Shown here in pieces: positions 1-62,030 of a stretch of 64,000 nucleotides of DNA. The DNA lies in NCBI GenBank assembly GCA_037833965.1, contig AP031355.1, forward strand, positions 15,277,501 through 15,341,500, written 5' to 3'. The translations under genes and the position numbers were made by a program. The notes beneath the pieces are model-generated. The model ran no database searches and was not told the DNA's origin. It saw nothing but the letters and a program-made list of their open reading frames with translations. How positions within the stretch are numbered: position 1 is the first letter of the stretch; every line of letters begins with the position of its first letter. The stretch comes from Marchantia polymorpha subsp. ruderalis (Eukaryota; Streptophyta; Marchantiopsida; Marchantiales; Marchantiaceae).

Positions 1-79
1 TCGCCCCTTTTCTCGCAGCTGCGCTTCGCAAGATGAAGACCGGAAGCAAAAAGAATGAAAGTATACTGAACAAGAGATG

Positions 80-3000
80 TCAGCCACTGGCAAGAGAGCC
101 ACCCCTGTGATGGGAAGGAGATCTACTGACTTCAGATGAACAGACAGGATCTGGAAGCCCAAGAGCCTGCGCAAATATCCTGCAAGCTGCAACGCCGGGT
201 CGCGAATTTCTCGATGGTCTCACTTGTGCCATGGTAGGACTGCTAAAAGTCTTGTGGACACTTTCACAAAAAACTTCGTCATTGTGAGAAGAGATAACCG
301 CGATGTTCTCCCTGATTTGTACTCCACCAGCAGGCACGTTGAGCCCTCCAGGTGAAAGTGGCCTACAGCTTTCTGCAAATAGACGTGACACATAGCATCA
401 CACATGAGGAACTGGGAGTCGTACCTACTGACCCAGCATGAGAAAAAAGAAGAGAAAAGACCCGTGTACAACACATGATGGATTACAGAATCGTACCAGA
501 AGCAGGTAATGGCGATAAAGTAGATTCCTCCACCAAGTTGACAACTGGATTGACAGCTATCCTGCATGGAACCTGGCGGGAAGGAAACCTTGGTGAGCTC
601 CCAGACGGTGGCAGACCAAGAGCGCTGGCGAACATTCTCTTGGCAGCTTTGACCGAAGACTGTTGCATTGCTTCCTTCGTCTCCTCCGAAGTTAGCTTTC
701 CGAGTGTGGTGCTTGGAGTTTCGTCGGTCGTTCTTTCGCCAAACTGAATGACTAAGTCTTGTGGCGTGATCACTTCAATCGAGGGGCTAGTGACAGCCAA
801 AAGCTTGGGCTTTCCTAAAGCGTGCGCGATCATTCTCCGAGCGACTACAGGATCCGATCGCGGCCTAGCATGTCCAGACTCCTTTGTATTCTCATCCGCA
901 TGTTTCCATTTCTCAGAGAATATCCTTTGCCTCGCTGCTAAATACGCTGCCTGCCTCTCTTCCAAGGACAAGCCAGGTGTGTTTACCAACGCTTGACCTT
1001 GAAGACCATCTGCAAGTAAAACAAAAAATACCTCACTCTTAGTAAGTAAAGTTGATCTGAAGCTTGCATTTTTAATTGAGAACATATAAGCGGGAATGAT
1101 GTTAGGCCTCTCAACAACGTCCAACGCGTTTGCTCCCAGCCAAACATCCCTGGATTCCTCATGTAGCGAGAGCTAGAGTGCATGTAATATCGTAATCCTA
1201 CGGTGTACTCTGGATGTCTTTGCAGTCAAGCAAGGTGTTTATTTGCCGTAAAAGGAAACTTCGGCCTCTCTGCGACGACATCCAGGTATCAGGCTTGCTA
1301 CTGCATCCAAGTCTGAACCAGCAGGTTCAACGACTTGTTGTTTCGAGTGGAGCCAAGGCAGACAAACCTGTTGGAGATGCATGGCGCTTTAAAAGCTGCC
1401 GAGAAGACTGAGGGTGATGTGCTTCTCCATCATTGTGTTCTAGTACATCACTCACAAGCACCGCAGGGCTGCAAAGAATCCAGGGGCTCAATGTAGGGTT
1501 AGCGAATATCTAAACATTACACGAAGATTAAAATTCGACTTCAGTCCAGAAAACTAGTCAAATATTGAGTAATCACATATAAACTATTACATGAAAATAA
1601 ACGTGACCCTGTTATCGGCAAGCAGATACACAAAAACCGCGAACAAGTTCAACGATGACACATACTAGCTCTACAAATGGGTTTGTAAGGTGACTGCCGA
1701 CTAGAAAAATAACTGCTATGCTTACATTAGTGATTCCTCGCATTTCTCCACCACAAGGTGCCTTTCTTCTCCTTCCCCCACGGACTCGTGTGCCAACCTG
1801 TTGGTAAAATCATAGGTGCAATCAAATTTTCAAGCCAGACTGATCAAAGGGCGTGCCACGATTACAAGCCATTCATCTGCTAAGAAGAAATGTTACAAAC
1901 CTGCAGCAAACTGAACGTGGCTTCTATAGATGGCTTCAAGCAGGGTACTAGAATGACTCTCTAGGTTCAACCAACCAAGGTTGGGTTGAAGACGCAGGAT
2001 TCAGAAACACGCTGGGTTCCGAGAAACGAGGGAGGCTAACTTTTGCAACAGTAGTTAACAAACGATCTTCCTTATACGTCGATGACCGTGGATGTAAAGC
2101 AAACAAATACATCGTTGTAAAAGGTGTACTTTCCGTTTGTTAATATTTCCTGTGCCCCGCAAGAAAATGAGTCCTTCAGCGCAATATTCCCCTGTTAAAA
2201 GGCTTGGATTTCTTACCCAAAGAGATCAGCGAGTCGATGCAGCAACATACGTTGGTAAGACACCATTGGCTCCAGTGCCAACGTTTCCTCCTCGCTGAAA
2301 CAGAAAACACAGTACTCAGACACGATTGCAACTTAACTGGACTTACCAGGTTAAAATTGCAGAAGCATACACATAACCCCGTCCAGAAGTCCTTACTGAG
2401 AAATGGTCCCACGGTTCATAAGTTAAAACCTCACCTCAGGGGACATTCCAAAAACTCCACGAACAACTCTTCGACAGAAAGTACGAGGTGCTTAGCGTAC
2501 AGGTTGTCTTTCACTAACCACGCCAGCTCTTCTACCTGATTCATATCCAAACACAATTTGACATCAAGCACAAAAATTGCCTGCTCTAGTCATTCATTAA
2601 GTTTCAGCGTAACTAAGAGGAATGCGGAGAAGCTGAAATATCAAGGGTGAGTGATGCACAAGAGTGGGGCCGCGCATGAGAAGGCTGGCTGCTGGTAGGC
2701 AATTACCAGGAAAAAGTCTGGTGATAACGGCCCGTAGGGCGGGGCACTGGCATGACCAAAATACGACGGAAAAGCGCACTTCTCAGGAAACTGGCTCGAT
2801 GGGATGCAAGGAGCCGTAGGACGGGAAACTGTCACGTACGGTTCTGAGTTGGCGGCCAGGTGGGAGACCCCTGGTCGACCATAACATGCTAGCAGATGTT
2901 GTCACCATCATAGGTACTCAAGATATTGTGTTTGGAGAGGTAGATAGATAGGACTACTAATTGCACAGGTAGGACAAAAAAATCTATATTGTTTTCCAGA

Positions 3001-3263
3001 AACTTATCCTTAAAAATGATACAACAATGTCTACAAGAGAGGTGCCACTTTGCCTAATATGCTGGAATAAGAAGGTGCACAAGAGGCTTAACCTGTGAGC
3101 TAGAAATTGCCAATGAGTAGCTCGGACTAACACAATACGAATCTTAAAAACCGTTCGTGATTCGGCACTCATTTGCACGCAGACAGACTTCTCGCAATCC
3201 AATAAAAAATTCAAATCCAGGAAGGCATACTTTCAACACACTTACAGGAGTCGGAATGCCCAT
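80..3263 (-). CDS. R3H and SUZ domain protein, seven exons
   Basis: Predicted single-stranded nucleic-acid/RNA-binding protein. I built the exons by eye from GT-AG sites and protein similarity: 3263-3246, 2535-2435, 2294-2217, 1797-1726, 1468-1368, 1009-589 and 239-80. They total 951 nt and stay in frame, giving 316 residues. Exons 2 to 5 encode the R3H domain: a VEELAWLVKD lead-in, the R-x3-H signature in QRMLLHRLADLFG, then AHESVGEGEERHLV and VLVSDVL. Exon 6 encodes the SUZ motif LEERQAAYLAARQRIF. The tail holds three related motifs (RRMIAHALGKP, KRMFASALGLP, CRIFAQALGLP). The start at 3263 has a good context (purine at -3, G at +4); an in-frame ATG at 3350 would add 29 residues. The last intron (588-240) is the least certain, because its donor GTTTCC is weak; without it the frame stops at 483. 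Intron 1 contains a group II intron fragment on the other strand. Confidence 0.85.
2590..2890 (+). other. Organelle-derived group II intron fragment (3' end), probable NUMT
   Basis: This GC-richer block inside intron 1 of the R3H-SUZ gene, on the opposite strand, ends in a group II intron domain V (2811-2844). A domain VI-like stem follows (CCAGG...CCTGG, about 2856-2873), then GGTCGACC and a pyrimidine-ended AAC. Bacterial and organelle group II introns end this way, and plant nuclear genes do not carry them, so the likeliest source is mitochondrial DNA copied into the nucleus. Both limits are approximate. I see no 5' intron end (GTGYG) and no maturase. Two short open frames on the minus strand (2597-2779, 2641-2835) are antisense to this fragment and are probably not genes. 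Confidence 0.75.
2811..2844 (+). ncRNA. Group II intron domain V
   Basis: Exactly 34 nt. An 8-bp outer stem (GAGCCGTA with TACGGTTC, including one G-U pair) is followed by a small bulge and a 5-bp inner stem (GACGG with CTGTC), closed by a GAAA tetraloop. The catalytic AGC triad of this domain is present at positions 2-4. This matches the family consensus in size, loop and triad. It appears inert here, since it lies antisense within a nuclear intron. Confidence 0.85.
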
Positions 3264-4930
3264 TGCGACAAGGCTCCCCACAGCTCCAATTCTCGAAATT
3301 TCCCAACACACGGCAACTCTGAATTCCTCAGTCACCCCACCTCGGGACATCCAGCCATATCCCCGCGTCTTAAAAAGTCGAATCTGGATCTATCGATGAT
3401 CGGGGTCTCCTCGACCGTGAATCAAAGCTGAAACAAAGTTCATCGACAAGAAGCAAAATCTTCTTCGCCCGAAATCCCAAGAGGAGCTGGCCTCTGCGAC
3501 AGCGGAGGTGCGTGCTCCCACAGGAATCGATCCGACAATCTCCGAACTCTCCGAACGTGTATGCTCAGCAAGCGCTCGTCTGCAGCAAATGCTGAAAACA
3601 CCCTACGAGTGCCAGGCTAGGCCAGTAGCTGAGCCATGTCTAGCCAAAAGCATTCTCAAATTCGGAACAACAACAGCGATCGCGCGGGGCAGTATCTCCT
3701 TTCGCTTCGACAGGACTCGTGGAAAGTCGCCTTCGTCGGTGCGGTGGGTCGTCCGTCCGACTGCCACGAGAGCTCGTGAGACAAAACCCTAGCGAGTGAA
3801 GCTTACGCAATGCGAGGAGGAGAAGGACGAGGTGAGAGATTGCTCCGGGAAAGCTCCTCGTCTACAGGGACATGCTCGCTCACACGACTAGGGTTCGTCG
3901 TCGTCTCGCGAATCGCTCAGAGCTGCGAATTGCGCGTTCGATTCATGCCATTCGACCACAAATTCTCGTTGCGCAGCGAGTGCTAATCGCTGCAGCAACG
4001 TCACGACATTTGTCGATCGCCGCTCGAAAATGCTGCCCAAATTTGAATGCCATAGATTCTTTCGCGAAGTTTGCGCTTCGTCAAGCTGGCCCCCTTGAGG
4101 CCAAGATCTCGCCCTCGGCGAGCCAACTTTTCTCCACTGTCGTCGTCTGCGTCTCCCGTTCCCGTGCCCCCGTCCTTCTGGGCTGCCCGCCGGACCTGGC
4201 CCCGGCCCTGCCATGGCTCGGCTCGGCGCAGGTTCGGATCTCACTCCAGCCTGGACTGCCAGCGTGGTGCATTTTGCACTTTACGGCCACTCGAGCACAC
4301 GGTGTGGTCAACTTTCAGTACAGCGTGATCGTCCACGTGCGTGCCGTTTCGGTGCAGTCTATTCCTCGCCGACCGCTTAGATGTTCACTCTTAGGAGAGA
4401 GGGGCCAAGTGAGCATCCGGTGACCCAGACAAACAACATGAAACTGAATGTGTAATGGCACCACTTATATCACAATTACAAGGATGTAACAGATTAAATT
4501 AAATCTTCCTGACTATCAATTGTGAGGAGTAAGTATATTTCAACTTTTTGTATAAATTTTAACAGGGAAATTTTTTTTCAGTATAGGTTGTGATCATTTA
4601 GATTTTAAGTCAAGATTGATGCGAAATATAATTTTACTATTATATTTTGTTTATAGTTTTTCTTTCTTAATTTCATCCAAAATTTTGTTACATGATCATC
4701 AAGTATGAAATTTGATTTTGGATGATATTTCAAAATATAAATTATACGATTTCAAATAAATATTACATTTAATAGTAGTATTAGCAATGATATCTTACAT
4801 AGTTATTGTATTATATTGAATTTAAAATTATTAGGTTATGATTATATTATTTAATTATTTCACATTTATTGATATTATACATCTTCTAACGCACACGAAA
4901 TATTCATAAACGGATTTCCCAAAAAACGGG

Positions 4931-4962
4931 GAAAATTTTCATCTATTTAGATGAAAATTTTC
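4931..4962. repeat. Perfect 15-bp inverted repeat
   Basis: Arms at 4931-4945 and 4948-4962 (GAAAATTTTCATCTA and its complement) are separated by TT, in AT-rich DNA. It could be a chance structure or a remnant of a small transposon. No function is indicated. Confidence 0.6.
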
Positions 4963-6989
4963 ATCTATTCATAGCTGCAAATTGTCTAAAATTTTCGCAA
5001 ACTTACATCCTGCGATTCGTACCTAAAGACCACGATGAATACTATATTATACCATGTAATTTAGTGGTAATCAAAAGATTCATCCCACTTAATCTATTTG
5101 AATTTAAAAGGTTAATCTTCAATCTACGATATTTCATAATTCTTCATCAATTTTCTCAAAATTGACATTTCAAACACATGAGATAAATTTCTGTCGACAC
5201 AAATTCACAAATTGATAAGATATTGTAATTGTTTGCAGCATGCTATGGTAAGTTCGCAGGTAGTAGCAAATGGCAATCTCTTCGTGCTCTCCAATGTGAT
5301 ATTGATTCCCTATATGCTGTTTAGTCGTGTGTACATTACAACAAATTTCGTTTGCAAGAGGGGGACTTTGACCGGCATCAGCATGAATGCAGAAGAGATC
5401 CAGCGAGACATTACACTTTGTGTTTGACCCAGACTCTACTTTGCGTATTCATCGGAGGACCCGACTTTGTACTTGTACTAGCCTAGGAGTGCCACCAACG
5501 AGTGGAAAGGAAAAAGAGGAAAACTCTGCTTATAATACTTGACAAGTTAACAAGTTAATATAACTTGACAAGTTAAAAAAGAGTCATTTTCCAATAATTG
5601 TGCAGCTTAATCGATTTTGTGGTCACAACTGTGGGATGAAGTCCAGCAATTGAATCACTCGAACCAGGTCTCATGCTCGAGAGTATCTGCCAATAAGAAC
5701 GGAGTTCAACACCGGGGCCTCGTATGTCATGGATGAATGTTCATCCAGATCTGTACCGCGGACACCGGTGCCATGAGGACTACGGTGGCATGGAGGAAAT
5801 TTATCTGCTGCTGTACAGGCACTAGTGAAGAACGATGGGTACAGCAGTCAACAGCCCTTTGTTCGTTGTGAAGAACATGGGTCACGTAGTAGCATCGTCA
5901 CTCCGTAGAGCCCTGTCCGGTAAGTTGTTCGCTCGTCGCTTTGTCCAAGCGACGTAGCTCAAGTATGTGGCAAACCTTTCGAGTTATACCTTGCGGTTCA
6001 CTGTGTGCATGCATCCCTGCTCTCGGTCGATCTCACCGGCAGGGACAAACTGTGAGACACTACTTGATGATGCGGAAGCTCGGAAGAATCACGAGAAACA
6101 TTGCATGATCCTAGCTTCCTATCGGCTGGATATCATGATCGGGAGTCAACCATTTCTTTCACAATTACGTCGGTTCCTGACGCGGACGTCCGAGATCCAG
6201 TCTGCACAGTTCGAACGAAGTTCGACGAAAGTCGATCCTTTAAGGTTTGGGGTACTTGGACATCTTACACGTGCACTTGTCAAAGCCGCTTACAAACGTT
6301 TACCAATCGTGCTCAGCTGTGACGACAGATCCCTTACACCATCTGCCAGAGATCACACAACAAGGGTTCATACATACTCTTCCCCAGTCCAGCATGAACA
6401 TGAATGAACAATGGTTGTAACACTGCTATCTTTCGCGGCATACTCAGCCGGCCGATGAGAAGCTCCTGAGTACACTGCACATGGGTATAAATAGGACTTT
6501 ATCAAAGGATAAGAGTCATGCCTGCATTCTAGACTCGAGTACGAATGTGATCGCTCTAGACTCTGAGAAGGATTACCACGCGAGTCAAGCATGGAGAAGT
6601 CCAAATATACGCTCATAAACAGAACCATTGAAGGCCGACAATGTTTGACACTTGCATGAAAGCACGCATACTCGGAAGAGGGACTTTCTCGCCTGAGTCG
6701 AAACGAGTCAGTTATAAGCAACTGTGATACAGACTGGACTGATTCTGCTGTACAGGCAACCTCCATAAGGTTGCCGCTACCCGGGGCAAATGTAGTGTGG
6801 CTAAAGACGAGCGTATGGTTTCATCGAAGAGTTTGTCAATTCCCAATGACCTTGATAACAGGCGATGTGTAAATGAGTGCAGTCTTTTTAGTCAACAAGT
6901 TTCGTTGCTGGAGTAGATTCCACTAAACTCTGTAAGGATCATGCATGGCTGCTGATCAACTATGGTTTCAGGCCTAGGCTTAGACTTTC

Positions 6990-48599: not shown

Positions 48600-49339
48600 G
48601 ATGCAACGTCCTCGTTGCACATACGTTCAAACTCCTGAACTATCAAAGGTGCATTTGCTAAATTTTTAGCTGGTTCCCAAGTTGATTCATACGATGGATA
48701 GCCTTTCCATTGAATCAAATACTCTACTTTGGGATATTTATGACCTCGAATACGTTTCTTGAGTATCTTTTCTACCTCAAACTCCTCATGATCTGCTATC
48801 AAGGTTGGAAGAGGAGGTGGTGCTGGTTGGTTGGTGAATTGTTTTGGTCGTGGTACATGTTTTCGCAATCGTGACACATGAAATACTGGATGTATTTTCA
48901 TATTTGACGGAAGTTTCAACTTGTATGACACTTCACCAACACGCTTCAAAACCAAAAATGGACCAATGAACCTAGGGTTTAACTTTGGTGTTCCTACAAG
49001 AGACAAATTCGTTGTAGATAACCAAACATGATTTCCAACCTCAAAAATCACTTCTCTACGATGACATCGGCATGTTGCTTTTGCCGATTTTGAGCTATCA
49101 CCAACTTCTCCTTGGCCTGATGTAGTCCTCGGTGAATATGCTCCACGAATTCGTTGACTGCTGCAACTTTGGTTGAAAACTCCTCTCCTTTCGGAAGTCT
49201 CATCAAACTTGAAGGAGTTATCGGATGAGCTCCATACATAAGAAAAAATGGAAACACTTTTGTGGATGCATTAACAGAATTGTTATATGCAAATTCCACA
49301 AGTGGCAAAAGGTTGTCCCACTCTTCTTGCTATTCTAAT
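48596..49339 (-). pseudogene. Gypsy B integrase C-terminus with chromodomain
   Basis: This is the part of the integrase gene left of the non-LTR insertion. It covers EEWDN..LPLVEFAYNNS, the GPY/F-type region ([20 protein letters not shown]) and a chromodomain ([36 protein letters not shown]), which places the element among chromoviruses. Chromodomains of this type steer integration to marked chromatin. The frame changes at about 49050, between the two halves (49308-49048 and 49051-48596). Confidence 0.85.
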
Positions 49340-51772
49340 ACACCTCTTTTATTCACTCTTTTGTTGTCAACGTCAATCCCTCTCCCTACATGTCACTATG
49401 TTTCTACTTCCCCCAAGTTTTGTTTAGATGCTAGTAAGAAGCAACTTTATAGTGAACATTTCCAAGACCTCTTGACTTGTACTACTTGGAGCCTTGATCC
49501 ACATACATCTAGTTTGCAACTAACAGAGTTGCTCCAAAACTCTGCTTCTAAGTTCTTTTTGAGACATAAGACCAGGAGAGCTAGAGGTCTTCCTTGCAAT
49601 GGATGGTTTGACTTTGATTGCAAGCAAGCAAGGGCGAGATCACTTGATAAATCCTTGGATCTTCACAATCGGTTGATTATGACAAGACTTTACAAAGACT
49701 TGGTGAAGTCCAAGAAACGAGCATTTTTGAGGCAGAAGCAAGAGTGCTTGACAAAGGAGCTCTTGGAGAATCCCAAATCCTTTTGGAGGCGGTTGGCAGT
49801 ACGATCTTCTAAACCTACTCTTGATCCCAAGTCTTTGATTTCTTTTGCTGAAAAGCTTTATTTCTTTCCCAATGTTGCATCTATGCCACATTGTGAAGGA
49901 AATCCAGGCTTATTTTCAGAAGTTGAAGTGATGACTCAACTCAGACAATTGGCAAATGGTAAATGTGAGGATTTGGATGGGCTTTCCATTGAACTTCTCA
50001 AGTGGGGAGGAGATGCTATTGGGCCTATACTCACGAAAGTGTTAAAGGATGCTGCTATTCATGGCTTTCCTTCATCTTGGTCTCTACGGAAGATTGTTCC
50101 TATTCACAAATCTGGGAGCAAGGCCTTGGTGACAAACTATCGCACTATCATGGTGGGTAGTATTTTTGCCAAGTTATTTGGCAAATTGGTGGAGTCAAAG
50201 TTGAGCACATGGGCTGAATCTTGTCAGAAGAGAGCGTGGTTCCAAGCTGGTTTTCGTCCTACATTCAACACTATAGACCATATCTTGGTTTTACGTGTTC
50301 TATGGGAGAAATCCAAGGGCAATGGAAAAGCTTTGTTTTGTGCCTTCATTGATTTCAAGAAAGCTTTTGACACAGTACCTCGTGAGCTTTTATGGCAAAG
50401 ATTGCAAACCATTGGAGTACCATCAGATCTCTTGGCAGCGGTGGCTGCATTATACCACTCAGTTCGGGCCAAGATCAACACTTCTCAAACCGAAGAGATT
50501 ATCAGCACCATTGGAGTCATTCAAGGTTGTCCTCTCTCTCCCACTCTCTTTGGAGTTTTCATAGATGATATAGAAAGGTGGTTGGAGGATTGTGATAGCG
50601 AAGGTGTTAAACTTGGAGGCTTTGTCATCAAAGCTCTTTTGTATGCAGATGATGTCATATTACTAGCACGTGATGCCACTAGTTTACAGAAACACCTAGA
50701 CACTTTGGCTAGCTTTTGTACTCAAAATCAGATGGAAGTCAATTTGGAGAAGTCCAAAGTCATTCTTGTGGGCACTAGATCCAAGCTCTCTTTCTGTTAC
50801 AAAGGATTAGAGTTGGAACAAGTGAAAAGTTACAAATATTTGGGCATTGATTTCTCATCTGATTATAGTTGGGCACTTTGTGTGCAAAAGAGGGTAGAAG
50901 CTGGTTTCAAAGCTCTATATTCATTGCTAAATAGATGTAGAGGAGCTCATCTAGTGTCTTGGAGTCTTAGGAAATTCTTATTCAGGAGCTTAGTGTTTCC
51001 CGTTATCTTATATGGAACACAAGTGTGGGGTCCTGGTTGTAAGAAGACAGGTTGGCAGCGTTTGGAGAGGGTGCAAAAGATCTTCTTACAAGAAGAATTG
51101 GGTGTGAGGACCCAAACTTCTTATGCAATTCTTCTTGCGGAAACAGGTTGTCTACCTCTTGAGGCTGAAGCTCTCTTTTTGACTATCACTTACGTCAAAA
51201 GAGTGAGATCTCTTGATGCTTCTCGACTTCCTCTTGAAGCTTTGCGTGCCACACGTCCCAAGGGTTGGTTTGCAGATGTGGTGACTTGGTCTTTGAGGTG
51301 GAATGTGACGGAACTCGATTGGAATTTGCAACCTATTGCCCTACGCGAGCGTATTAAGGAGGAATTTCTCAGCATTATGTGGAGCAGACGAGGCACCAAG
51401 ATGCAGTTTTATGAACTTCATGTGAATCCTATGCTTGTTTATTGTGAGCAAGGATACTTACTTGCAGAGATATCTACTTCTTTACGTCATATCATTGCTA
51501 GACATAGAACTGGATCTCATAGTCTTGGGATTGAAGAAGGGCGTTGGTTGAACATTGATAGGAGTGAACGTATTTGTAGGCTATGTGATGGGAGAAATGT
51601 TGAGGATGAAGAGCATGTGTTTATTACTTGTACTAGATATATAGAGATTCGAGTAGCGCATAAAGTTGATGTCGAGAATTTCTTTTCTCTGCTTCAACTC
51701 GAGCCTTATGATTTAGGTTGTTACATTAGAGATATTATTAGTTACCGTTCTAGTGCTTTGGGCACTAGCTAG
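49340..51772 (+). CDS. LINE reverse transcriptase ORF (5'-truncated, otherwise open)
   Basis: About 810 codons are open without a stop. Domains in order: remnants of the endonuclease end (to about 49500), a linker, then reverse transcriptase with FIDFKKAFDTVPRELLW (about 50346), the catalytic LLYADD (about 50636-50654) and KYLGIDFS (about 50836), followed by a thumb region and a C-terminal CCHC zinc-knuckle-like motif CRLCDGRNVEDEEHVFITC (about 51575-51632). The open frame runs leftward into host Gypsy sequence to 49262, so its first 20 or so codons are not LINE. The first ATG in frame lies well inside (LIMTRLYKD, about 49677), so translation as it stands is doubtful. Confidence 0.85.
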   Translation, partial: TPLLFTLLLSTSIPLPTCHYVSTSPKFCLDASKKQLYSEHFQDLLTCTTWSLDPHTSSLQLTELLQNSASKFFLRHKTRRARGLPCNGWFDFDCKQARARSLDKSLDLHNRLIMTRLYKDLVKSKKRAFLRQKQECLTKELLENPKSFWRRLAVRSSKPTLDPKSLISFAEKLYFFPNVASMPHCEGNPGLFSEVEVMTQLRQLANGKCEDLDGLSIELLKWGGDAIGPILTKVLKDAAIHGFPSSWSLRKIVPIHKSGSKALVTNYRTIMVGSIFAKLFGKLVESKLSTWAESCQKRAWFQAGFRPTFNTIDHILVLRVLWEKSKGNGKALFCAFIDFKKAFDTVPRELLWQRLQTIGVPSDLLAAVAALYHSVRAKINTSQTEEIISTIGVIQGCPLSPTLFGVFIDDIERWLEDCDSEGVKLGGFVIKALLYADDVILLARDATSLQKHLDTLASFCTQNQMEVNLEKSKVILVGTRSKLSFCYKGLELEQVKSYKYLGIDFSSDYSWALCVQKRVEAGFKALYSLLNRCRGAHLVSWSLRKFLFRSLVFPVILYGTQVWGPGCKKTGWQRLERVQKIFLQEELGVRTQTSYAILLAETGCLPLEAEALFLTITYVKRVRSLDASRLPLEALRATRPKGWFADVVTWSLRWNVTELDWNLQPIALRERIKEEFLSIMWSRRGTKMQFYELHVNPMLVYCEQGYLLAEISTSLRHIIARHRTGSHSLGIEEGRWLNIDRSERICRLCDGRNVEDEEHVFITCTRYIEIRVAHKVDVENFFSLLQLEPYDLGCYIRDIISYRSSALGTS

Positions 51773-52939: not shown

Positions 52940-54520
52940 TCACTTCTGACCTTTCCCTAACATGGAAGTCAAGGCCTGAGCTAGTCGAGCAAAACCTTTC
53001 ACAAATCTACGATAGAATCCAGTGAGCCCTAGAAAACTCTTCAATTGAGTTTGATCCTCAGGTGCTATCCATTTCTGAATGGCATCTATCTTCTCACTCA
53101 TCACTTGGATTCCTGTAGCTGTAACTCTATGACCCAAGTAATCTACTTCTGACTTGCCAAATTCACATTTTGAAGCTTTGGCATACAATTGATTGTCTCT
53201 TAAAACTTGAAGTACCTCTCGTAAATGACTTCTATGATCACTCAAAGTTTTGCTATACACCAATATATCATCTAGAAAAACAATGACAGATTTATCTAGA
53301 TAAGGGCGAAAGATATCGTTCATCAATCCCATGAATGTAGCTGGTGCATTAGTGAGACCAAAAGGCATCACCAGATACTCAAAGTGTCCATACCTAGTAC
53401 GAAAAGCTGTCTTGTGAACATCTTCATCTGCAATTCGAATTTGATTGTAGCCGCTTCTCAAATCTAGCTTGGTGAAGTACTTCGCTCCTTGAAGTTGATC
53501 AAACAAATCATCCATACGAGGTAATGGATATTTGTTTTTCACCGTTTGCTGATTCAACCTGCGATAATCGATACATAGTCTCATGGATCCATCCTTCTTC
53601 TTCACAAAGAGTACTGGAGCTCCATAGGGTGAAACACTTGGTTGAATGAATCCCTTGCTCAACATCTCCTCCACTTGAGCTTTGCATTCTTCCAATTCGT
53701 TTGGAGCCAAACGATATGGAGCTTTGCAAGTTGGTGTACTTCCAGGTATCACCTCAATCTTGTGATCAACTCGCCTCTTTGGTGGTAATCCTGCAGGTAG
53801 ATCATCTGGAAAAACATCTTTATACTCCATAAAAATGTCGTTCAAGGACTCCGGGATGTAAGGTTTGTCCGTGGACCCAATATCTCTTATAAGTCCAAGG
53901 AAACATACATCATCTCTAGAAATGGATGCTGTACCCATCACAAAGAGGGGTAAATTCCTATTCTGAGATCTAATTCTATCTCCATAGATCTTCCATCCAC
54001 TACTTGTAATCACTTTTCTTCTCCAATCTACCTTTGGATTATATTGTTCCATCCATGGCATTCCAAGGATGACATCATACCGAGCTAAACGAATTACTCT
54101 CCATTCAATGCTCTCCTTGTATCTACCTATGGATAATTCTACACTCCGTGGTAGTGTTTCTATCACTTCAGTTTGCCCGTTTGGCAATTCAACTTCTTCA
54201 CTCACGTCCTTCATCAACATCAAACCTAACTTCATAGCAACACTCCTTGATAGAAAATTCTCAGTTGCTTCAGGATCAATTAAAACTCTCACCTTGTGTC
54301 CTTCCATGAAACCATCAGTGACAATGAGTTGAGCTTGCTTCTTACTCCTTCCATGAGCTCCCAACCATTGCTTTCTTCCAACCTCGCCTTTTCTTCGCTT
54401 TGTAGAACCAGTAAGGCCGCGAGGCAAGATTACTGGTGATATTCGTTTCCCGAAACTGCTTCCTCCACCTCTTCATACTCTATCCCCTCCATATTGTTGA
54501 ACGGTCGTCGCTGCATGGGC
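52940..54520 (-). pseudogene. Gypsy B protease and reverse transcriptase
   Basis: The long open frame (54427-52940) starts without an ATG and was once joined to gag upstream. Protease-like text [15 protein letters not shown] carries D-P-E-A in place of the usual D-S/T-G-A. RT is complete: [51 protein letters not shown] and the catalytic [10 protein letters not shown], then [10 protein letters not shown] and [16 protein letters not shown]. The frame ends at a TGA at 52940, before RNase H. The piece 54427-54520 ([15 protein letters not shown], in another frame) is the gag-pol linker up to the insertion at 54525. Confidence 0.85.
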
Positions 54521-54921
54521 CGTCCTGTGGTACCCCACTTTTGGCAATTTTGAGGAAATTAAAACATTTTTGGAAAACTGTACCCTGGCAGCATTGTAAA
54601 TAGCCTTCGGTACATCAAAACAGAGTGAATCCGGAAGATCGCGGGGATTCTCGAGGGATCTTGTAGAATCTGGGATTTGGGGTGCCGCAGTAAGGACAGG
54701 CACCACCCTCCCTGCGAGCTCTGCAGTTAGGATCTCTACGGCGCAAGGCGCAAAACCCGCCTTCGGAGGTTGCGTCCGCGGCTGTAGGGAAACCCTCCAT
54801 AATTAGGTCAACCCTCGGGCGCCTTGACCAAGTTAGGATCCCGTTGGAAAGAGCTCGACGCACTGATTCCAACGAGCCCAAGAACGCTTGGAACGGATGA
54901 GGACTTAGGGAGTTATCGCTA

Positions 54922-55490
54922 TTGGAAGAAACGGAGGCGGTCGCCTACGGCGGAAGGAGTTCGCCACCGGCGCGAATTCCGCCTACGCGGAAGGGGGAAT
55001 CAAGTTTTGTCCTATGCGCGGACGAAGGCGTTCGCCTGTGCACAGGCGAAGTAGGGTTAGGGAAGGCGCGAAGTCCGCCTATGCGCAGGCGCTTGCCTGT
55101 GCACAGGCACTTCGGCGTCGGCGGAAAATCCGCCTTGGGCCCTAGAAATGCGCCTTGTGAGGTAGAAAGTGTACGGCGCCTTCCGCGCCAGCGCAGCGCC
55201 GCGTACGTCGGAAGGGCCGCCAGAGTAATCAAATCGGTACGGACCATGCGGACGGGAAGGGTGGATACGCTCTTGGACGGACGGAGTTGCGGCGGCGGAA
55301 GCGCCGACGAAGAGACAAGGAACGGACAGACTGGACGGAGACGGCTGACCACGGTCAACGCCTTCCGCGCCAGCGCAGACCCGCGGACGGAATTCGCCTG
55401 CGCACAGGCGAACGCCTGTGCACAGGAGGATGAAGTTCCGCACCGGCGGAGAATCCGCCGAGGCTCCTGCCTGCGCACAGGCAGGAGTTG
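54922..55490. repeat. Leader palindrome cluster of the unknown element
   Basis: The palindrome core CCTGTGCACAGG appears at 55035-55046 (within the perfect 20-bp palindrome 55031-55050), 55096-55107 (within 55094-55109) and 55415-55426. Near-palindromes with one changed central base lie at 55393-55412 and 55464-55487. A second inverted pattern, GGCGGA...TCCGCC, is scattered among them. These lie upstream of the long ORF. Open frames on both strands cross this area but their products are just translations of the repeats. Confidence 0.8.
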
Positions 55491-55769
55491 AATTTTTGTC
55501 CAACATGCGGACACACGCGTCAAGGCAGAGGGGGATTGGCCGAGGGGCGGTACGAACAAGTGTACCGCGCAAGGCGGAAAACTCGCCTTCGGCGCTACGC
55601 CCCCATGTCCGCAGGGTGACACGCTCGCGGAGTTCAAATCCGCCAATTCGAGCGTGAGAGTTTAATCGACGACGGCGGAGCGTGAAGCCGCGCGTGAGAG
55701 CGAAGACCGTTCCAGCGTACAGCCGGCGCGGCCTTCAAGTGAGACGTTCTTCACGACCAAGAGCCGACC

Positions 55770-58622
55770 ATGACCTTCGACCGGGCGGCGGAGAACGTCC
55801 CATTCTTGAATTCGCGATTCCAATCTCTTGTGCGCGCTGCGCGCATCCATCTGCTGGCTGCGGAACATTCTCGATGTCGTCGCACAGGAGATTTCTTGTT
55901 GATTGAGGGAGAAGTGAGTGCGCGTGATTTGGAATTGAGGGCGATTAGAGTTTGCCGAGAGAGAAAGAAACCCGGGCGGTGCGGAAGTAGAATGAGCGGG
56001 CGAGCGAACCCCAGGAACGCAATGACGAGACCGAGCAGATTGCGGATGGTGCCACTTCGCCTGCCGCAGAACGGGCTGCGCGCTTTTGAGGAGCGCTTAA
56101 TAGCAAGAAAGCTCGATTTCTTGCTATGGGGATGGAATTACATCTGTGCGAACATGGTGCGCGAGTGGCTAGAGCCACAGGGACCACCCTCGCGCGGATT
56201 GCGTCCGCATGTTGACCGGTGGACAGTCCAAGATTGGGCGCAGGCGTTGGGAAGATGTGCTGGCATGCCAGGGCATCTCCTTTTCGACAGTGAGAGCATC
56301 AAGGTGACCAAGCAAGAAGAGGCGCAATTTGTGGAGCTGTTCAAGACCGGGAGGTCTACCAAGAATGGGTACAGGACCCGTGATTACAAGGATCGATTTC
56401 GCCGGACTTTGTCCGCGGCGCTGATGCAATTACTGCAGCCGCACCGCGCCTGCTACATCACATTGTGGCAGGTCTCTTTTGTGGAGTGCGTCATCGAGGG
56501 AACTCCAATTCACTGGGCGAGCATCCTGCACAGGGTGATGCGACAGCACGCGTTTGAAGAGAAAGGGGGAACTCTAAACCATCTTTCTCCTTTCCTCATC
56601 AATTTTTATCGACAGCGGAATTGTTTGACAGCGGCGGAGCTTGAACATTTTCCGCCATTGTCCATCGACCATCCCGGGAAGTATGTGCGGGAAAACGAGG
56701 TCGATACCGATGCAGAGGAGTCACCGACTTCTACCCCATCAAGACGGAGGGACGAAGGGAGACACACCCCTGCAGCGCGAGTGCCGCGGAAGCGGCGATG
56801 GAGGGAAGAGTCTGAAGAGGAGCAGCATCAAGAACCCTCTGCTCCCATTCGACCGCGGCCGCTGTGCGAGCCATACAGCCGGCCGAAGCAGAAGGCACGC
56901 AGACTGGTGTTGCCAGCTGACAGTGCAGACACGGCGACGATTGCGACGGAGATAGGAAGTGCGTCGCCAGAGAGGCGAGAGGAAGCGCGGACGACCGCAG
57001 GAGCAACGGGCCACGCTGCAACCTCGACGGGAGAGAGGCCGCCTACGGGTCAAGGGCCTCCGGAGTTACCACGTGCGATGCGGACAGATGTTCCGTTTGC
57101 GCACAGGCGAACCTCCGCGGACGGACGAGCCTCCGCGGACCGGCGAACACAAGTGGACGTGGATCTACGCTTACGCGTGGGAAGGAGCAGTCCGCCTGTG
57201 CACAGGCGCTCACCTGTGCACAGGTCGCCTGTGCACAGGACACCTCCACACGTGCCGCCTGTGCACAGGCAAGAATCACCCCCGTTCCAACGTAGGAAGG
57301 GGAAGGAGCCGGCGGAAGAACCGCCTACGAGACACCGGCCCTCGGGGCCAGACCCTCCGGCGCACCACGCGCCGCAATTTGCGCCTTCGGCGCCAGGGCC
57401 TTCGAGCCGAGGAGATACGAGCAGAGAGCGTGCGGAGGCCGCACCATCGGCGGGAAGTCCGCCGATAGATGCGCCTTCGGCGGTAGGGCCTATAGGCCAA
57501 GGAACATCGGGCGTGCGGCCCCCGGCCATGTCGCCTTCGGCGATAGATGTCCGCGGCGCTACGCCTGCGACGGACAAGGCGCCGGCAAATGCGCCTGCGC
57601 ACGGGCCGGGCACAGCTCCCACGGACCGATCAAGGGAGCAGCAGCAGACGGAGGAGCGTAGTGACTGTCCGCGGGATAAAATCTCGATGCGCGATGCGCA
57701 ATCCAACCCCGCGCAGCCACCCTCCGCTCAATCGCCTTCGGCGACGGACGACGGAGACAGAGAGAACGCGGTAGGCAATCAACAAGCGAGAGACGGGGAT
57801 GCCGCACGGGTACATTCGCCTTCCGCCTTAGACATTTTGGCGACGAGCAGCGAGGCTGCAGCCGTGCCTTCGCAGGCAGCACACGTCGACGACGTGCCGC
57901 CCCACTCGGGGCAGTCGCCGACGCAATCAATGGCGACTGAAATTCTCCACTCGGATGATGACGACGGAGGCTCCACGGAAGAAATGTCAGGAGCAGAAGA
58001 CACCGAGGAGGAGGAGGAGGAAATTGTTGGAGCGCCGGCGGCTGCGCTCTCTAAGCAGGTGATTCCGTTGCTGCGGTACTTGGATCGCAAGGTCGATAAA
58101 TACGCCGATCCACTCCAGCCGGGATCTTACATCGAGTTAGTGCGCAGACGGACTCGCACTAAAGTCCACACCAGCAAGCTATTAGCTAGAGTGGACCAGG
58201 AGTTGAAGGACTTGAAGGAGAAGCATGCGTGCTTGTGGGGTCAGTACAAGCCTAATCAGAAATTCTACAAGCACACCGAGAAGATGAAGGATGAAAAACT
58301 GGGCGAGCTCACCAAGGAGCAGGTGAAGGTCAAGGAAGCATTCATTTCTGAGCAGGCCCAGAATCGGATTTTGTCAGAGGAGCTCGTGCGACAGACGCGG
58401 TTGTTGGAACAATGTCAGCTCGCACGGCAGGCGGATGAAGAGTTAATCCGCAGGTTGCAGTCAGAGTGTGGCGAATTGAGAGCGCAACGTGCTGAAGCCG
58501 AATCACAATTAGTGATACTTGAAGAGGATCGCAGGAAGGAGGCGGATCGCACGAAAGTGGAGACGGCGAGGCGAGTCGCCCACTGTCTCAAGGGCTACGC
58601 CCACTGGGAAGTGAAGGCGTAG
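55770..58622 (+). CDS. Unknown element-encoded protein, 950 codons
   Basis: I do not recognise the family. The frame opens at an ATG at 55770, but similarity to the broken copy at 37.1-39.3 kb begins at MTRP (56022), so translation may start there or at MSGR (55992). Residues about 85-300 form a conserved, Trp-rich, probably folded domain (RKLDFLLWGWNYICANM, YITLWQVSFVE, IHWASILHRVM, LSPFLINFYRQRNCLT). A Pro/Arg/Ser-rich disordered region follows (about 305-720), with a PVHR-rich repeat created by the palindromes. Next come an acidic run (about 727-752), the conserved block QVIPLLRYLDRKVDKY (about 764-779) and a long coiled coil to the end. The layout of the N-terminal domain faintly recalls the putative plant transposon protein domain; that is a guess. 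Its TAG stop (58620-58622) interrupts a frame open to 58910. Confidence 0.75.
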   Translation: MTFDRAAENVPFLNSRFQSLVRAARIHLLAAEHSRCRRTGDFLLIEGEVSARDLELRAIRVCRERKKPGRCGSRMSGRANPRNAMTRPSRLRMVPLRLPQNGLRAFEERLIARKLDFLLWGWNYICANMVREWLEPQGPPSRGLRPHVDRWTVQDWAQALGRCAGMPGHLLFDSESIKVTKQEEAQFVELFKTGRSTKNGYRTRDYKDRFRRTLSAALMQLLQPHRACYITLWQVSFVECVIEGTPIHWASILHRVMRQHAFEEKGGTLNHLSPFLINFYRQRNCLTAAELEHFPPLSIDHPGKYVRENEVDTDAEESPTSTPSRRRDEGRHTPAARVPRKRRWREESEEEQHQEPSAPIRPRPLCEPYSRPKQKARRLVLPADSADTATIATEIGSASPERREEARTTAGATGHAATSTGERPPTGQGPPELPRAMRTDVPFAHRRTSADGRASADRRTQVDVDLRLRVGRSSPPVHRRSPVHRSPVHRTPPHVPPVHRQESPPFQRRKGKEPAEEPPTRHRPSGPDPPAHHAPQFAPSAPGPSSRGDTSRERAEAAPSAGSPPIDAPSAVGPIGQGTSGVRPPAMSPSAIDVRGATPATDKAPANAPAHGPGTAPTDRSREQQQTEERSDCPRDKISMRDAQSNPAQPPSAQSPSATDDGDRENAVGNQQARDGDAARVHSPSALDILATSSEAAAVPSQAAHVDDVPPHSGQSPTQSMATEILHSDDDDGGSTEEMSGAEDTEEEEEEIVGAPAAALSKQVIPLLRYLDRKVDKYADPLQPGSYIELVRRRTRTKVHTSKLLARVDQELKDLKEKHACLWGQYKPNQKFYKHTEKMKDEKLGELTKEQVKVKEAFISEQAQNRILSEELVRQTRLLEQCQLARQADEELIRRLQSECGELRAQRAEAESQLVILEEDRRKEADRTKVETARRVAHCLKGYAHWEVKA
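57193..57270. repeat. Palindrome cluster inside the unknown ORF
   Basis: CCTGTGCACAGG cores lie at 57195-57206 (within the perfect 16-bp palindrome 57193-57208), 57213-57224 (within the perfect ACCTGTGCACAGGT at 57212-57225), 57228-57239 and 57258-57269 (within the perfect 14-bp palindrome 57257-57270). They are translated as repeated PVHR. A related degenerate copy is at about 57097-57110. Confidence 0.85.
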
Positions 58623-58910
58623 GAGAAACTCACACTGCGTGAGTTTGAATTGCGCGCAGCCGGGTTGTTGTCAGGCGACAGTAGGAGTCGGCGGAAGGTA
58701 GCAAAGAAGCTCGATGCCTTTCTGTCGAAGGCACAGGATACCATGTCCGCCCTCGAGGGGGAGGTGTCCGCGGCGATGCAGCGTTTGGGACTGCGCAGTC
58801 GAGCGGAAGATTGGCAGGGTAGGGAGTTAGTGCGCGGCAGTCGGCCGCGCAGGAGGCGTAGTACAGGTTCCGCGGAGTGTAGTGTAGCGTGGTTCCGTGC
58901 AGGCGTGTAG
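58623..58910 (+). other. In-frame continuation of the unknown ORF after TAG
   Basis: The same reading frame continues open for 95 codons after the TAG at 58620-58622. It begins EKLTLREFELRAAG and continues with more coiled-coil-like, charged sequence (RRKVAKKLDAFLSKAQ). This suggests the TAG is a recent nonsense change (CAG-to-TAG would suffice) or that the product is made by readthrough. Confidence 0.6.
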
Positions 58911-59358
58911 CGTAGTGCAGTGTAGTGTTAGGTAGGATTTAAAAGGTATAAAATAGTTCCAGGCGTTTTGCCTGGGGTTCTTTCCCATCAGAAGTGCAGA
59001 TCAGGAACCCATTTCCTTTGCGTGTTTGTGTCCTTGAGTTCTGTCACCACGCACGAGGAGTTACAACTTAGCGTTCCGCATTTTGTAGCTGAAGGCCTTC
59101 GGCCGAATGTTCAGAGCTAGTACATTGGTTAGAGACTTGAGTAGTTCGGATCTGCACCTGCGGGTGACTGCCGATGCTCAGAGCCAGTGACTAGTTAGAT
59201 ACTTGAACAGTTTCGCCCCTACACCTTCGAGTGTTTCTTTCTGATTGTACTCCTTTGGGATTTTTCCCCTGAATGCCAAAGTGAAGTTTTGCTACTTCGT
59301 GTAAGCCTTGGTTGTAAATTCAGGTTACGCTGCAGCAGGTGCCTTGAGGGTAACCCCT

Positions 59359-59826
59359 GTAGTATTTCTGGGAATGACAAGTGCCTGAGAATTCAAACTC
59401 TTCAATAGACTGTTGTTGTGTTACTGGAATGTTTCTCAGTGAGCCCTTCAGTGCGGACCTGTGTTCTCTGCGCGTTTTGTGAGTTGAGAGTGTTGTTCAC
59501 CGCGTATGAGTGACTTCGATCCGAAGTAGGCAGTCCAAACCGGGTTTCCTACACTAGCAGCAAGCTAGTGGAAGTGTTGTAAAAGCCGGAGTTGGAAGTC
59601 ACTACCCGCAGCTTCGCCGAGTGTGCTCGCGAGAGACTTTCCCCCCTGAAATCTTGAGTAGAGGTCCTAACGGATCTCTGGGTTGTGTTTCTGTAGTTTC
59701 AGGTGTGTGTGTGTGTGTGTGTGTGTTACGCTGCACTTTGCGACCTCCGAGTGCGCTCCGAGTGGACACTTGCAGTATTTCTGGGAGTGACAGTTGCCTG
59801 AGAATTCAAACTCCTCAATAGTCTGT
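59359..59826 (+). repeat. Duplicated ~56-bp segment in the 3' region of the unknown element
   Basis: 59359-59414 and 59772-59826 share GCCTGAGAATTCAAACTC and neighbouring text (TATTTCTGGGA.TGACA, TTCAATAG.CTGTT) with a few differences. The copies are about 413 bp apart. A (GT)n run lies between them at 59703-59726. Confidence 0.85.
59703..59726. repeat. (GT)n microsatellite
   Basis: Twelve GT dinucleotides in the 3' region of the unknown element. Confidence 0.9.
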
Positions 59827-59929
59827 TAAAACGTGACACTTTGTACCCTGTGTGTTCCTCTGTCCCTGTGGGTTCGACCTTTCTACCACTATATTGCAGT
59901 TTTAGCCTTTAGTGGGTTATTACACGTCC

Positions 59930-60996
59930 TCCTTGTTGTGTCGGCCGCACTCGAAAAAACTTGGCTATGTGACCCATTCGTCCACATGCATAGCATTGGT
60001 GATTGTCACGAACTCCAGCTCCTCGAACCATTCCATTATTTGCATAACCTTCTTGCAAATTTGGAACTCCTGGTCGCCTAATCTCACCTCCAAATCTTGG
60101 TGGTGGTCCTCTTGTTGGTGCAAAACCTTCTCTACGTCGAAGGTTTCCCAACTCCATCGGTGTTGGACCAGATGGATCTCTAAAATTGCTCACTGGCTCA
60201 CCGTGTGTGACACCAAAAGCACCTGAAATTCGTTGAGCAATTGCGATTGCTTCATTCACAGTAGATGGATTGCTTACCATCACCTCCTTTCGAATTCGAT
60301 CTTTCAAGCCTCGTTTGAACACATCCAAGGCTTCAGCTCCACTCATATCCATGATAGATACTTGAAGATCACGAAATTCTTCAATGTACTCATGAATACC
60401 TCCTTTCTGCTTCAGATCCCACAACTTCATTCTTGCAGTTTGAAGAGAATCCACCGCTTGAAAATTTTGCAGAAGTACTTCCTGCATTCCACTCCACGAA
60501 ATGATAGCACCTTGTTCTGAAAGCATTCTCTCCCATGTTGTGTACCATGTGAGAGCCTTATCCGTAAGATAAGATCTCATGAACATTCCTGCAATATAAT
60601 CAGAAACATGAAAATGGGATAAATGAATATTCATCCTCATAATCCATCCCTCTAACACTCCCATTGCTCTACTCCCTTTGTAAGCTTCCACCTTACAGGA
60701 TTTTCCCATTCGAAGCAAAAGATTTGCTTGATCTTCAATCTCTTGAAGACGTCTCCTATTTGCCTCTGCTGCATCAATAGGGGTTGGTTCTGGCTGAACT
60801 TGGGAAGCTTGAACTTGAGGTTCAACTTCCATCTCTCCAACTCTCTCTCTCTCTCTACTTTCTCACTCTCTAATGCAAAGATTTTATCTTCCATGGCTTG
60901 CTGCTTGGTATGCCCATCTACTATCGCTTTTCTCAACTCCTTCATCTCTGCCATGATTGCATTGAGAACCTCACCCATATCAATTGATGTTCCCAT
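59930..60996 (-). pseudogene. Gypsy B gag, frameshifted
   Basis: The N-terminal part reads from ATG 60996 (MGTSIDMGEVLNAIMAEM..., helical, charged). It leaves frame at an AG dinucleotide run at about 60837-60856. The remainder is open from 60832: a capsid-like retrotransposon gag domain (AYKGSRAMGVLEGWI, ALTWYTTWERML, DLQVSIMDMSGAEALDVFKRGL) and a zinc knuckle CYACGRMGHIAKFF near the end. The knuckle's fourth ligand, normally Cys, is Phe. The C-terminus is cut by the unknown element at 59929. Length change in the AG run is the likely cause of the frameshift. Confidence 0.85.
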
Positions 60997-61610: not shown

Positions 61611-62030
61611 TGTAACACTAGGGTTTAGAGAGAAGTTCACTCGAAGATAGAAACGTAAACTCTGAAGATGAGAGATACCAACAATGGTTCTCCTCTCCCT
61701 TATATAGCTCTCACCAACAAGTACAAGGTGATAAGATCTAATCCCCACCATCCATCCCACTCCTAGTGGATGGATGACGTGGCGGATAACCCTAACAAGC
61801 ACACGGATCGCTGACGTGGCGCACCCAACTAACACACTAACTAACACACTCAATCCTTACCTACAAGCACACGGATTGCTGACGTGGCACTGTCAACTAA
61901 CACATCCACTCTGTACCTACCAAGTGCGCGGATCGCTGACGTGGCAGCTATGACTGGTGCACACTAAAGTATCTACATCAATATTCAGAGTAACCTCTAC
62001 TTTAGTTCTAACTAACTAAAGATGGTTACA
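61611..62030 (-). repeat. 5' LTR of Gypsy element B
   Basis: 420 bp, with the same ends as the 3' LTR. The promoter TATATAAG (minus strand) is at about 61699-61706. Four copies of TGACGTGGC (plus-strand reading) lie upstream of it in U3, at 61775, 61812, 61880 and 61937. Confidence 0.95.

What the first reader, a model, noticed from the sequence alone, without database searches (positions are those of the whole stretch)
54526..59924. A 5.4-kb mobile element of unrecognised type, bounded to the base
The sequence shows an exact 5-bp duplication (CGTCC) on both sides, TG...CA ends and 20-bp imperfect inverted termini (14/20). Deleting it rejoins the Gypsy gag-linker frame. Five-bp duplications with TG...CA ends are the mark of retroviral-type integrases, yet there are no LTRs and no RT or integrase. 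The only long protein has no domain I know. Either an LTR-type integrase moves an LTR-less cargo element, or this is a DNA transposon family with an unfamiliar transposase.
Basis: partly seen in the sequence, partly recalled or inferred. Interest (0 to 1): 0.85.

Follow-up and report, generated by a model that had tools for sequence, protein, structure and literature searches.

The report
Solo LTR carrying a conserved gene
The 5.4-kb insert is a single end-repeat (solo LTR), likely left behind by recombination, of a very abundant Ty3/gypsy retrotransposon in what is likely a liverwort genome, and unusually the repeat itself carries a long reading frame whose variation shows the imprint of selection for a protein.

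Summary
In the same genome (241 Mb, 9 contigs, likely Marchantia) 19 copies spanning its whole length were read. Six have exact 5-bp duplications (solo LTRs), eight run directly into 1.5 kb or more of a gag-pol internal region, four more directly follow its polypurine end, and one shows neither. Genome-wide there are 1,391 LTR-internal and 1,203 PPT-LTR junctions. The internal part encodes gag, an in-frame UAG followed by CAAUUA, then RT, RNase H and integrase; its primer-binding site matches tRNA-Asp 18 of 18. What is left is unusual: the LTR's U3 holds a 1,046-codon frame (cut to 950 in the window copy). Variants shared between copies fall mostly at third codon positions (26/29/74), those in the rest of the LTR do not, and dN/dS against one diverged relative is 0.36 (0.21 and 0.25 in the end parts; shifted-frame controls 0.8-1.7). 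It is likely an accessory gene in the place of env-like genes but inside the LTR, as in MMTV sag (recalled). New variant of a known kind.

The parts
54521..54525 (.). target-site duplication CGTCC, left
   Evidence: read directly
54526..59924 (+). solo LTR, 5,399 bp, TG...CA
   Evidence: 19 copies in the genome share both ends; flanks of those copies; LTR-internal and PPT-LTR junction counts
55770..58622 (+). reading frame in U3 of this copy, 950 aa, cut short by a TAG
   Evidence: 15 of 23 copies carry 1,046-1,051 aa from the same ATG; selection tests
58623..58910 (+). remainder of the frame that is open in 15 of 23 family copies
   Evidence: coordinates from the sequence
58947..58953 (+). 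TATA box of the LTR promoter (predicted), taken to mark the end of U3; start site not determined
   Evidence: the 12-mer around it is identical in 22 of 23 copies; no TATA-like match upstream of the frame in the window copy
55035..57269 (.). seven exact copies of the palindrome CCTGTGCACAGG (starts 55035, 55096, 55415, 57195, 57213, 57228, 57258)
   Evidence: 7 in the LTR, 0.0 per LTR in 300 Markov resamples, 0 in the rest of the window, 0 in the relative L038
59353..59827 (+). 62-bp direct repeat pair (59353-59414 and 59766-59827, 87%) downstream of the TATA box
59925..59929 (.). target-site duplication CGTCC, right
52940..54427 (-). protease-RT frame of the resident Gypsy element into which the LTR inserted
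   Evidence: Pfam RVP_2 and RVT_1
59909..60832 (-). gag frame of the same resident Gypsy element
   Evidence: Pfam Retrotrans_gag, Ty3_capsid

Best explanation
The insert is a solo LTR of a Ty3/gypsy retrotransposon whose other copies in the same genome read LTR-gag-pol-LTR; it was probably left when recombination between the two LTRs deleted the internal part. Shown: exact 5-bp duplication, shared LTR ends, adjoining PBS/gag or PPT in other copies, and the interrupted resident Gypsy. Inferred: a full element entered the resident Gypsy by its own integrase, and LTR-LTR recombination then removed gag-pol. Shown: the LTR holds a frame, 1,046 codons in most copies read, upstream of its only TATA-like sites, with the substitution pattern of a protein under purifying selection. 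Inferred: the frame is expressed from the 3' LTR as the last gene of the genomic RNA (R-U5-gag-UAG-pol-U3 frame-R), probably after splicing. It would thus serve as an accessory protein in the position of plant env-like/aORF genes, with the PPT lying upstream of it so that reverse transcription copies the gene into both LTRs. Inferred: pol is made by reading through the gag UAG.
For: Of 19 copies with both ends, 6 have exact TSDs; 8 continue into the internal region (15 bp read; the next 1,500 bp match it at 98.2-100% in 8 of 8), one of them also preceded by it; 4 more are directly preceded by its last 1,500 bp with the PPT; 1 shows neither. Junction counts 1,391 and 1,203, reversed-pattern controls 0. 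Internal region: Retrotrans_gag, zinc knuckle, weak aspartyl protease, RVT_1, RNase H, Integrase_H2C2, rve. PBS 18/18 to tRNA-Asp, 29 exact among 33 genomic matches; the 3 fetched are tRNA-Asp(GTC) by ARAGORN. Five of five internal copies read keep gag 943-944 codons ending GAA-TAG-CAA-TTA; four of five keep pol 946. All 100 listed of 765 gag-pol junction sites read TAG at the wildcard codon (reversed control 9). U3 frame: shared variants 26/29/74 by codon position against 21/17/24 and 11/15/11 in the rest of the LTR; dN/dS 0.36, shifted frames 0.9 and 1.27.
Against: No transcript or protein evidence. TAG conservation among copies about 2% apart is partly common descent, and CAATTA was fixed in the pattern. 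The PBS starts 22 nt after the LTR end (5 bp in Diaspora and Calypso), and the trimming this implies is unexplained. Singleton against shared variants differ only weakly (Fisher p 0.065). The dN/dS test rests on one relative (L038), itself a broken solo LTR, and dS there is above 1 (near saturation). No conserved domain and no usable fold for the U3 protein. L013 fits neither a TSD nor a junction.
Confidence: 0.93

Rival explanations
1. The U3 frame is a by-product of G+C-rich, palindrome-rich sequence and codes for nothing; long LTRs simply tolerate it.
For: Middle third is weakly constrained (dN/dS 0.64); no Pfam domain; 8 of 23 copies are shortened.
Against: Codon-position bias inside the frame but not in the rest of the LTR, dN/dS 0.21 and 0.25 in the end parts with shifted-frame controls 0.99-1.7; 15 of 23 copies intact; homologues at 38-65% identity within Marchantia.
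Confidence: 0.1
2. An LTR-less cargo element is mobilised in trans by an LTR-type integrase.
For: Six of the 19 full-length copies are bounded by TSDs with no internal region attached.
Against: The same sequence forms the LTRs of gag-pol elements at over a thousand junctions, so solo copies need no separate mechanism.
Confidence: 0.02
3. A DNA transposon family of unfamiliar type (Ginger-like or other) with an unknown transposase.
For: Inverted termini 14/20 and 5-bp TSD.
Against: PBS, PPT, gag, RT and integrase in the full elements; no Pfam family, so no known transposase, in the 950-aa frame.
Confidence: 0.01

Closest known systems
Athila/Calypso/Diaspora and Tat plant Ty3/gypsy elements (OTA group)
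   Same: Ty3/gypsy pol without a detected chromodomain; tRNA-Asp PBS of 18 bases, as described for Diaspora, with Calypso alike (PMC1142308, passages seen); long LTRs; env-like coding sequence beyond pol in Athila and Calypso (same passages), here a frame beyond pol too.
   Different: LTR 5.4 kb against 2.5 kb in Diaspora; PBS 22 nt rather than 5 bp from the LTR; the extra frame lies inside the LTR, not between pol and the PPT. No sequence relation of the frame to env-like genes was tested.
[not shown]
   Same: Same host group, Ty3/gypsy pol with no second RNase H detected by Pfam.
   Different: Not placed by phylogeny here; no LTR-encoded gene is mentioned in the passages seen.
Mouse mammary tumour virus sag (recalled)
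   Same: A gene encoded in U3 and so present in both LTRs.
   Different: No sequence relation tested; function of the plant protein unknown.
Retrosat2 (PMC3485330, abstract seen)
   Same: Plant LTR element with LTRs over 3 kb and an extra frame (ORF0).
   Different: The abstract does not place ORF0 in the LTR; Retrosat-2 is listed under chromovirus Del/Tekay in a passage of PMC6317226.

Membership tests
Solo LTR | TG...CA sequence shared with the LTRs of full elements, flanked by one TSD, no internal region | tested here: met
Ty3/gypsy LTR retrotransposon (full copies) | two LTRs, PBS, gag-protease-RT-RNaseH-integrase order, PPT | tested here: met
   the protease match is below the Pfam cut-off
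Chromovirus | chromodomain at the integrase C-terminus | tested here: not met
   no chromodomain family at E<=0.1
Tat with aRH | additional RNase H domain | tested here: not met
   only RT_RNaseH/RT_RNaseH_2 found in pol at E<=0.1
[not shown]
   no reference set on hand; the four best pol relatives are Riccia sorocarpa proteins (best 120 of 4,349 listed)
Athila/Calypso-type priming | PBS complementary to tRNA-Asp | tested here: met
   18/18
LTR-encoded gene (MMTV sag-like arrangement) | conserved protein frame within U3 | tested here: met
   U3 boundary inferred from the TATA box
LTR-encoded gene (MMTV sag-like arrangement) | expressed protein | not testable with these tools
   no RNA or protein data
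Type I stop-codon readthrough (TMV class) | UAG CAR YYA between two in-frame genes | tested here: met
   consensus as given in PMC3542737 (passages seen); readthrough itself untested
LTR-less DNA transposon | own transposase, no LTR retrotransposon copies | tested here: not met

The most novel reading that the evidence does not exclude
A plant retrotransposon has moved a whole selected gene into its U3. Every round of reverse transcription therefore duplicates the gene at both ends, and every LTR-LTR recombination leaves a single-gene relic, so thousands of LTR copies are dispersed copies of a retrotransposon protein gene that can still feed or interfere with active elements.
Probability: 0.3. 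Interest if true: 0.75.

Novelty: new variant of a known kind. Interest (0 to 1): 0.52.

Why it matters
A 5.4-kb solo LTR with a long frame looks like a new transposon or a gene and can be annotated as either. The family has 3,336 LTR left ends and 6,404 right ends in 241 Mb, so it shapes the genome. If the U3 protein is made, this is an LTR-encoded, selected protein in a plant retrotransposon; I know that arrangement from MMTV (recalled), and no plant case showed in the titles and abstract starts listed. It also offers a TMV-type gag-UAG-pol site for testing readthrough in a bryophyte.

Tried and rejected
Fold of the U3 protein: AlphaFold2 on residues 85-320 with 28 rows gave mean pLDDT 40, so no fold search was made. 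Distant homologues: a profile search found 37 proteins; the 32 named ones are all Marchantia polymorpha and five are unnamed contigs (P0017, P0018, P0019, P0022, P0038). The first tRNA pattern had an extra N and found 1 off-target site; corrected. Ginger-like transposon and trans-mobilised cargo were considered and dropped because full copies carry gag-pol. Papers: searches list no LTR-encoded protein in a plant element by title or start of abstract (open-licence library, 20, 23 and 17 papers listed), which is weak evidence of absence. (17 listed) likewise shows no plant Ty3 gag-pol UAG-CAA-UUA case.

Full report
Observation. The insert at 54526-59924 is flanked by CGTCC on both sides, begins TGTGG and ends TTACA, and its termini match 14/20 in inverted orientation. 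Removing it with one CGTCC gives a 342-codon open stretch of the resident Gypsy gag region across the junction, and the uninterrupted site occurs 360 times in the same genome. The 950-aa frame has no Pfam family at E<=1.

Host. The window lies in a 241-Mb, nine-contig assembly. All ten database proteins related to the 950-aa frame in the first search are from Marchantia polymorpha, and nine contigs fit the nine chromosomes of that species (recalled). I take it as Marchantia or very close; the species was not established.

What it is. A search of the genome returned 23 scored near-complete copies, 19 spanning 1-5399; the other four matches stop at 5184-5242, in or near the TG microsatellite, and their right ends were not pursued. 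Flanks of the 19: L001, L003, L008, L011, L015 and L018 have exact 5-bp duplications (6). L002, L004, L010, L012, L014, L016, L017 and L019 run past TTACA into TAAGAAGCCGAC and match the internal region for the next 1,500 bp at 98.2-100% (8). L002 is also preceded by the last 1,500 bp of the internal region with the polypurine tract TTGAGGAGGGGGGCA; L005, L006, L007 and L009 are preceded by it only (4). L013 shows neither (1). Among the solo copies L018 lies inside a diverged relative's internal region, which is 66-81% like this family's. Pattern counts with up to two mismatches: LTR-internal junction 1,391, PPT-LTR junction 1,203, LTR right end 6,404, LTR left end 3,336, all with zero hits for the reversed control. 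These are junctions, not intact elements, and the right end may be shared by related subfamilies.

Full elements. L031 (C5:26866700-26872600) is the internal part between two LTRs. It holds gag (944 codons: Retrotrans_gag, zinc knuckle, weak aspartyl protease), one in-frame TAG, and pol (946 codons: RVT_1, RT_RNaseH, Integrase_H2C2, rve); no chromodomain and no second RNase H were found. The PBS TGGCGCCGCTGCCGGGGA starts 22 nt after the LTR and is complementary over 18 of 18 bases to the tRNA-Asp end with CCA: 33 genomic matches, 29 exact, and the three fetched are tRNA-Asp(GTC) by ARAGORN. tRNA-Asp priming with 18 bases is described for Diaspora, where as in Calypso the PBS starts 5 bp after the LTR (PMC1142308, passages). 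Pol relatives are widespread (4,349 proteins, best 120 listed), the four best being from the liverwort Riccia sorocarpa at 71-76%.

Arrays. On C5 the elements form LTR-int-LTR-int-LTR-int-LTR in one orientation, one LTR being interrupted by a further LTR copy. The outer flanks share ACGAG, and the whole lies inside another LTR copy at its positions 3858-3862. The three uninterrupted array LTRs differ by 20-28 of 5,394 bases and the other two internals are 99.8-99.9% identical to L031, so the array is young. A second array on C6 has three LTRs and two internals, one with a broken pol. Equal spacings of about 11.2 kb among listed PPT junctions (for example C2:31345312, 31356496, 31367680, 31378864) suggest more arrays. 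Unequal LTR recombination would explain arrays and solo LTRs alike (inference).

The gene in the LTR. From the same ATG, 15 of 23 copies have a frame of 1,046-1,051 codons and eight are shorter; the window copy stops at 950. The only TATA-like sites in the window LTR lie just downstream of the frame (LTR 4413 and 4422); the 12-mer around the second is identical in 22 of 23 copies. The frame thus fills most of U3. Variants shared by two or more copies fall 26/29/74 by codon position inside the frame (59 nonsynonymous, stops included, of 129; 0.649 expected under C-to-T/G-to-A changes, p 1e-5) but 21/17/24 in the upstream part and 11/15/11 downstream. Read in the two shifted frames the same variants deviate the other way (107 and 101 of 129 nonsynonymous, p 3e-6 and 0.035), as the third-position excess requires. 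The frame against the relative L038 gives dN/dS 0.36 (874 codons; N-domain 0.21, middle 0.64, C-terminal part 0.25), while shifted frames give 0.9 and 1.27 overall and 0.8-1.7 by part. L038 is itself a solo LTR, 4,948 bp, TSD GGTTC on both sides, 66-79% identical in its two long aligned stretches, with a broken frame, so the arrangement extends to a second subfamily.

How it likely works. Transcription would start downstream of the TATA box, run R-U5-gag-UAG-pol, and include the U3 frame of the 3' LTR before polyadenylation. Pol would be reached by reading through UAG: TAG CAA TTA matches the type I consensus UAG CAR YYA of tobamoviruses (PMC3542737, passages). Five of five internal copies keep it, and all 100 listed of 765 sites read TAG at the wildcard codon, though CAATTA was fixed in that pattern and copies are young. 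The U3 protein would be an accessory protein, placed like the env-like frames of Athila-type elements (reviewed in PMC7264820, first of three parts seen) but inside the LTR because the PPT lies upstream of it. Its biochemical role is not known; I think a particle- or nucleus-associated accessory protein most likely, given a conserved N-terminal domain and a charged C-terminal part that looks coiled-coil (by eye).

Known or new. Two Tat lineages without the additional RNase H are reported from Marchantia (PMC10508981, section 5); this family may be one, untested. A liverwort survey counts 222 full-length LTR elements in M. polymorpha ruderalis (PMC9985172, passages); the 1,203 PPT junctions here are not the same measure, but 5.4-kb LTRs may be under-called. 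No paper on an LTR-encoded protein in a plant element showed in the listings. The solo LTR itself is ordinary; the selected U3 gene makes it a new variant of a known kind.

Noticed in passing
window 49262-51772 (+): An 836-aa frame with a reverse-transcriptase domain as its only Pfam match, probably a LINE-type element, next to the resident Gypsy.
   Followed up: partly
window 55035-57269: Seven exact copies of the palindrome CCTGTGCACAGG in the LTR, both upstream of and inside the frame, and none in the related LTR L038; CGCCTTCGGCG occurs 5 and 4 times in the two.
   Followed up: partly
window 61768-61961: Imperfect repeats sharing GACGTGGC, beyond the gag side of the resident Gypsy.
   Followed up: no
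L031 5855-5816 (minus strand): PBS lies 22 nt beyond the LTR end although integrated copies end exactly at TTACA, so the right cDNA end should need trimming of about 22 nt.
   Followed up: no
C6:9797852-9798273 and C6:9624706-9625127: The same 88%-identical LTR fragment (1-424) lies in opposite orientation 27 bp from a 3' LTR at two places, probably a segmental duplication.
   Followed up: no
C2:31345312-31378864 and C3:22622616-22645011: PPT-LTR junctions at near-constant 11.18-11.20 kb spacing, indicating tandem LTR-internal arrays.
   Followed up: partly
L011, L012/L007, L013, L014, L016, L017: Many of the 19 copies directly abut other LTR copies of the family on one or both sides, so insertions into family LTRs are frequent; whether beyond what abundance gives was not tested.
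   Followed up: no
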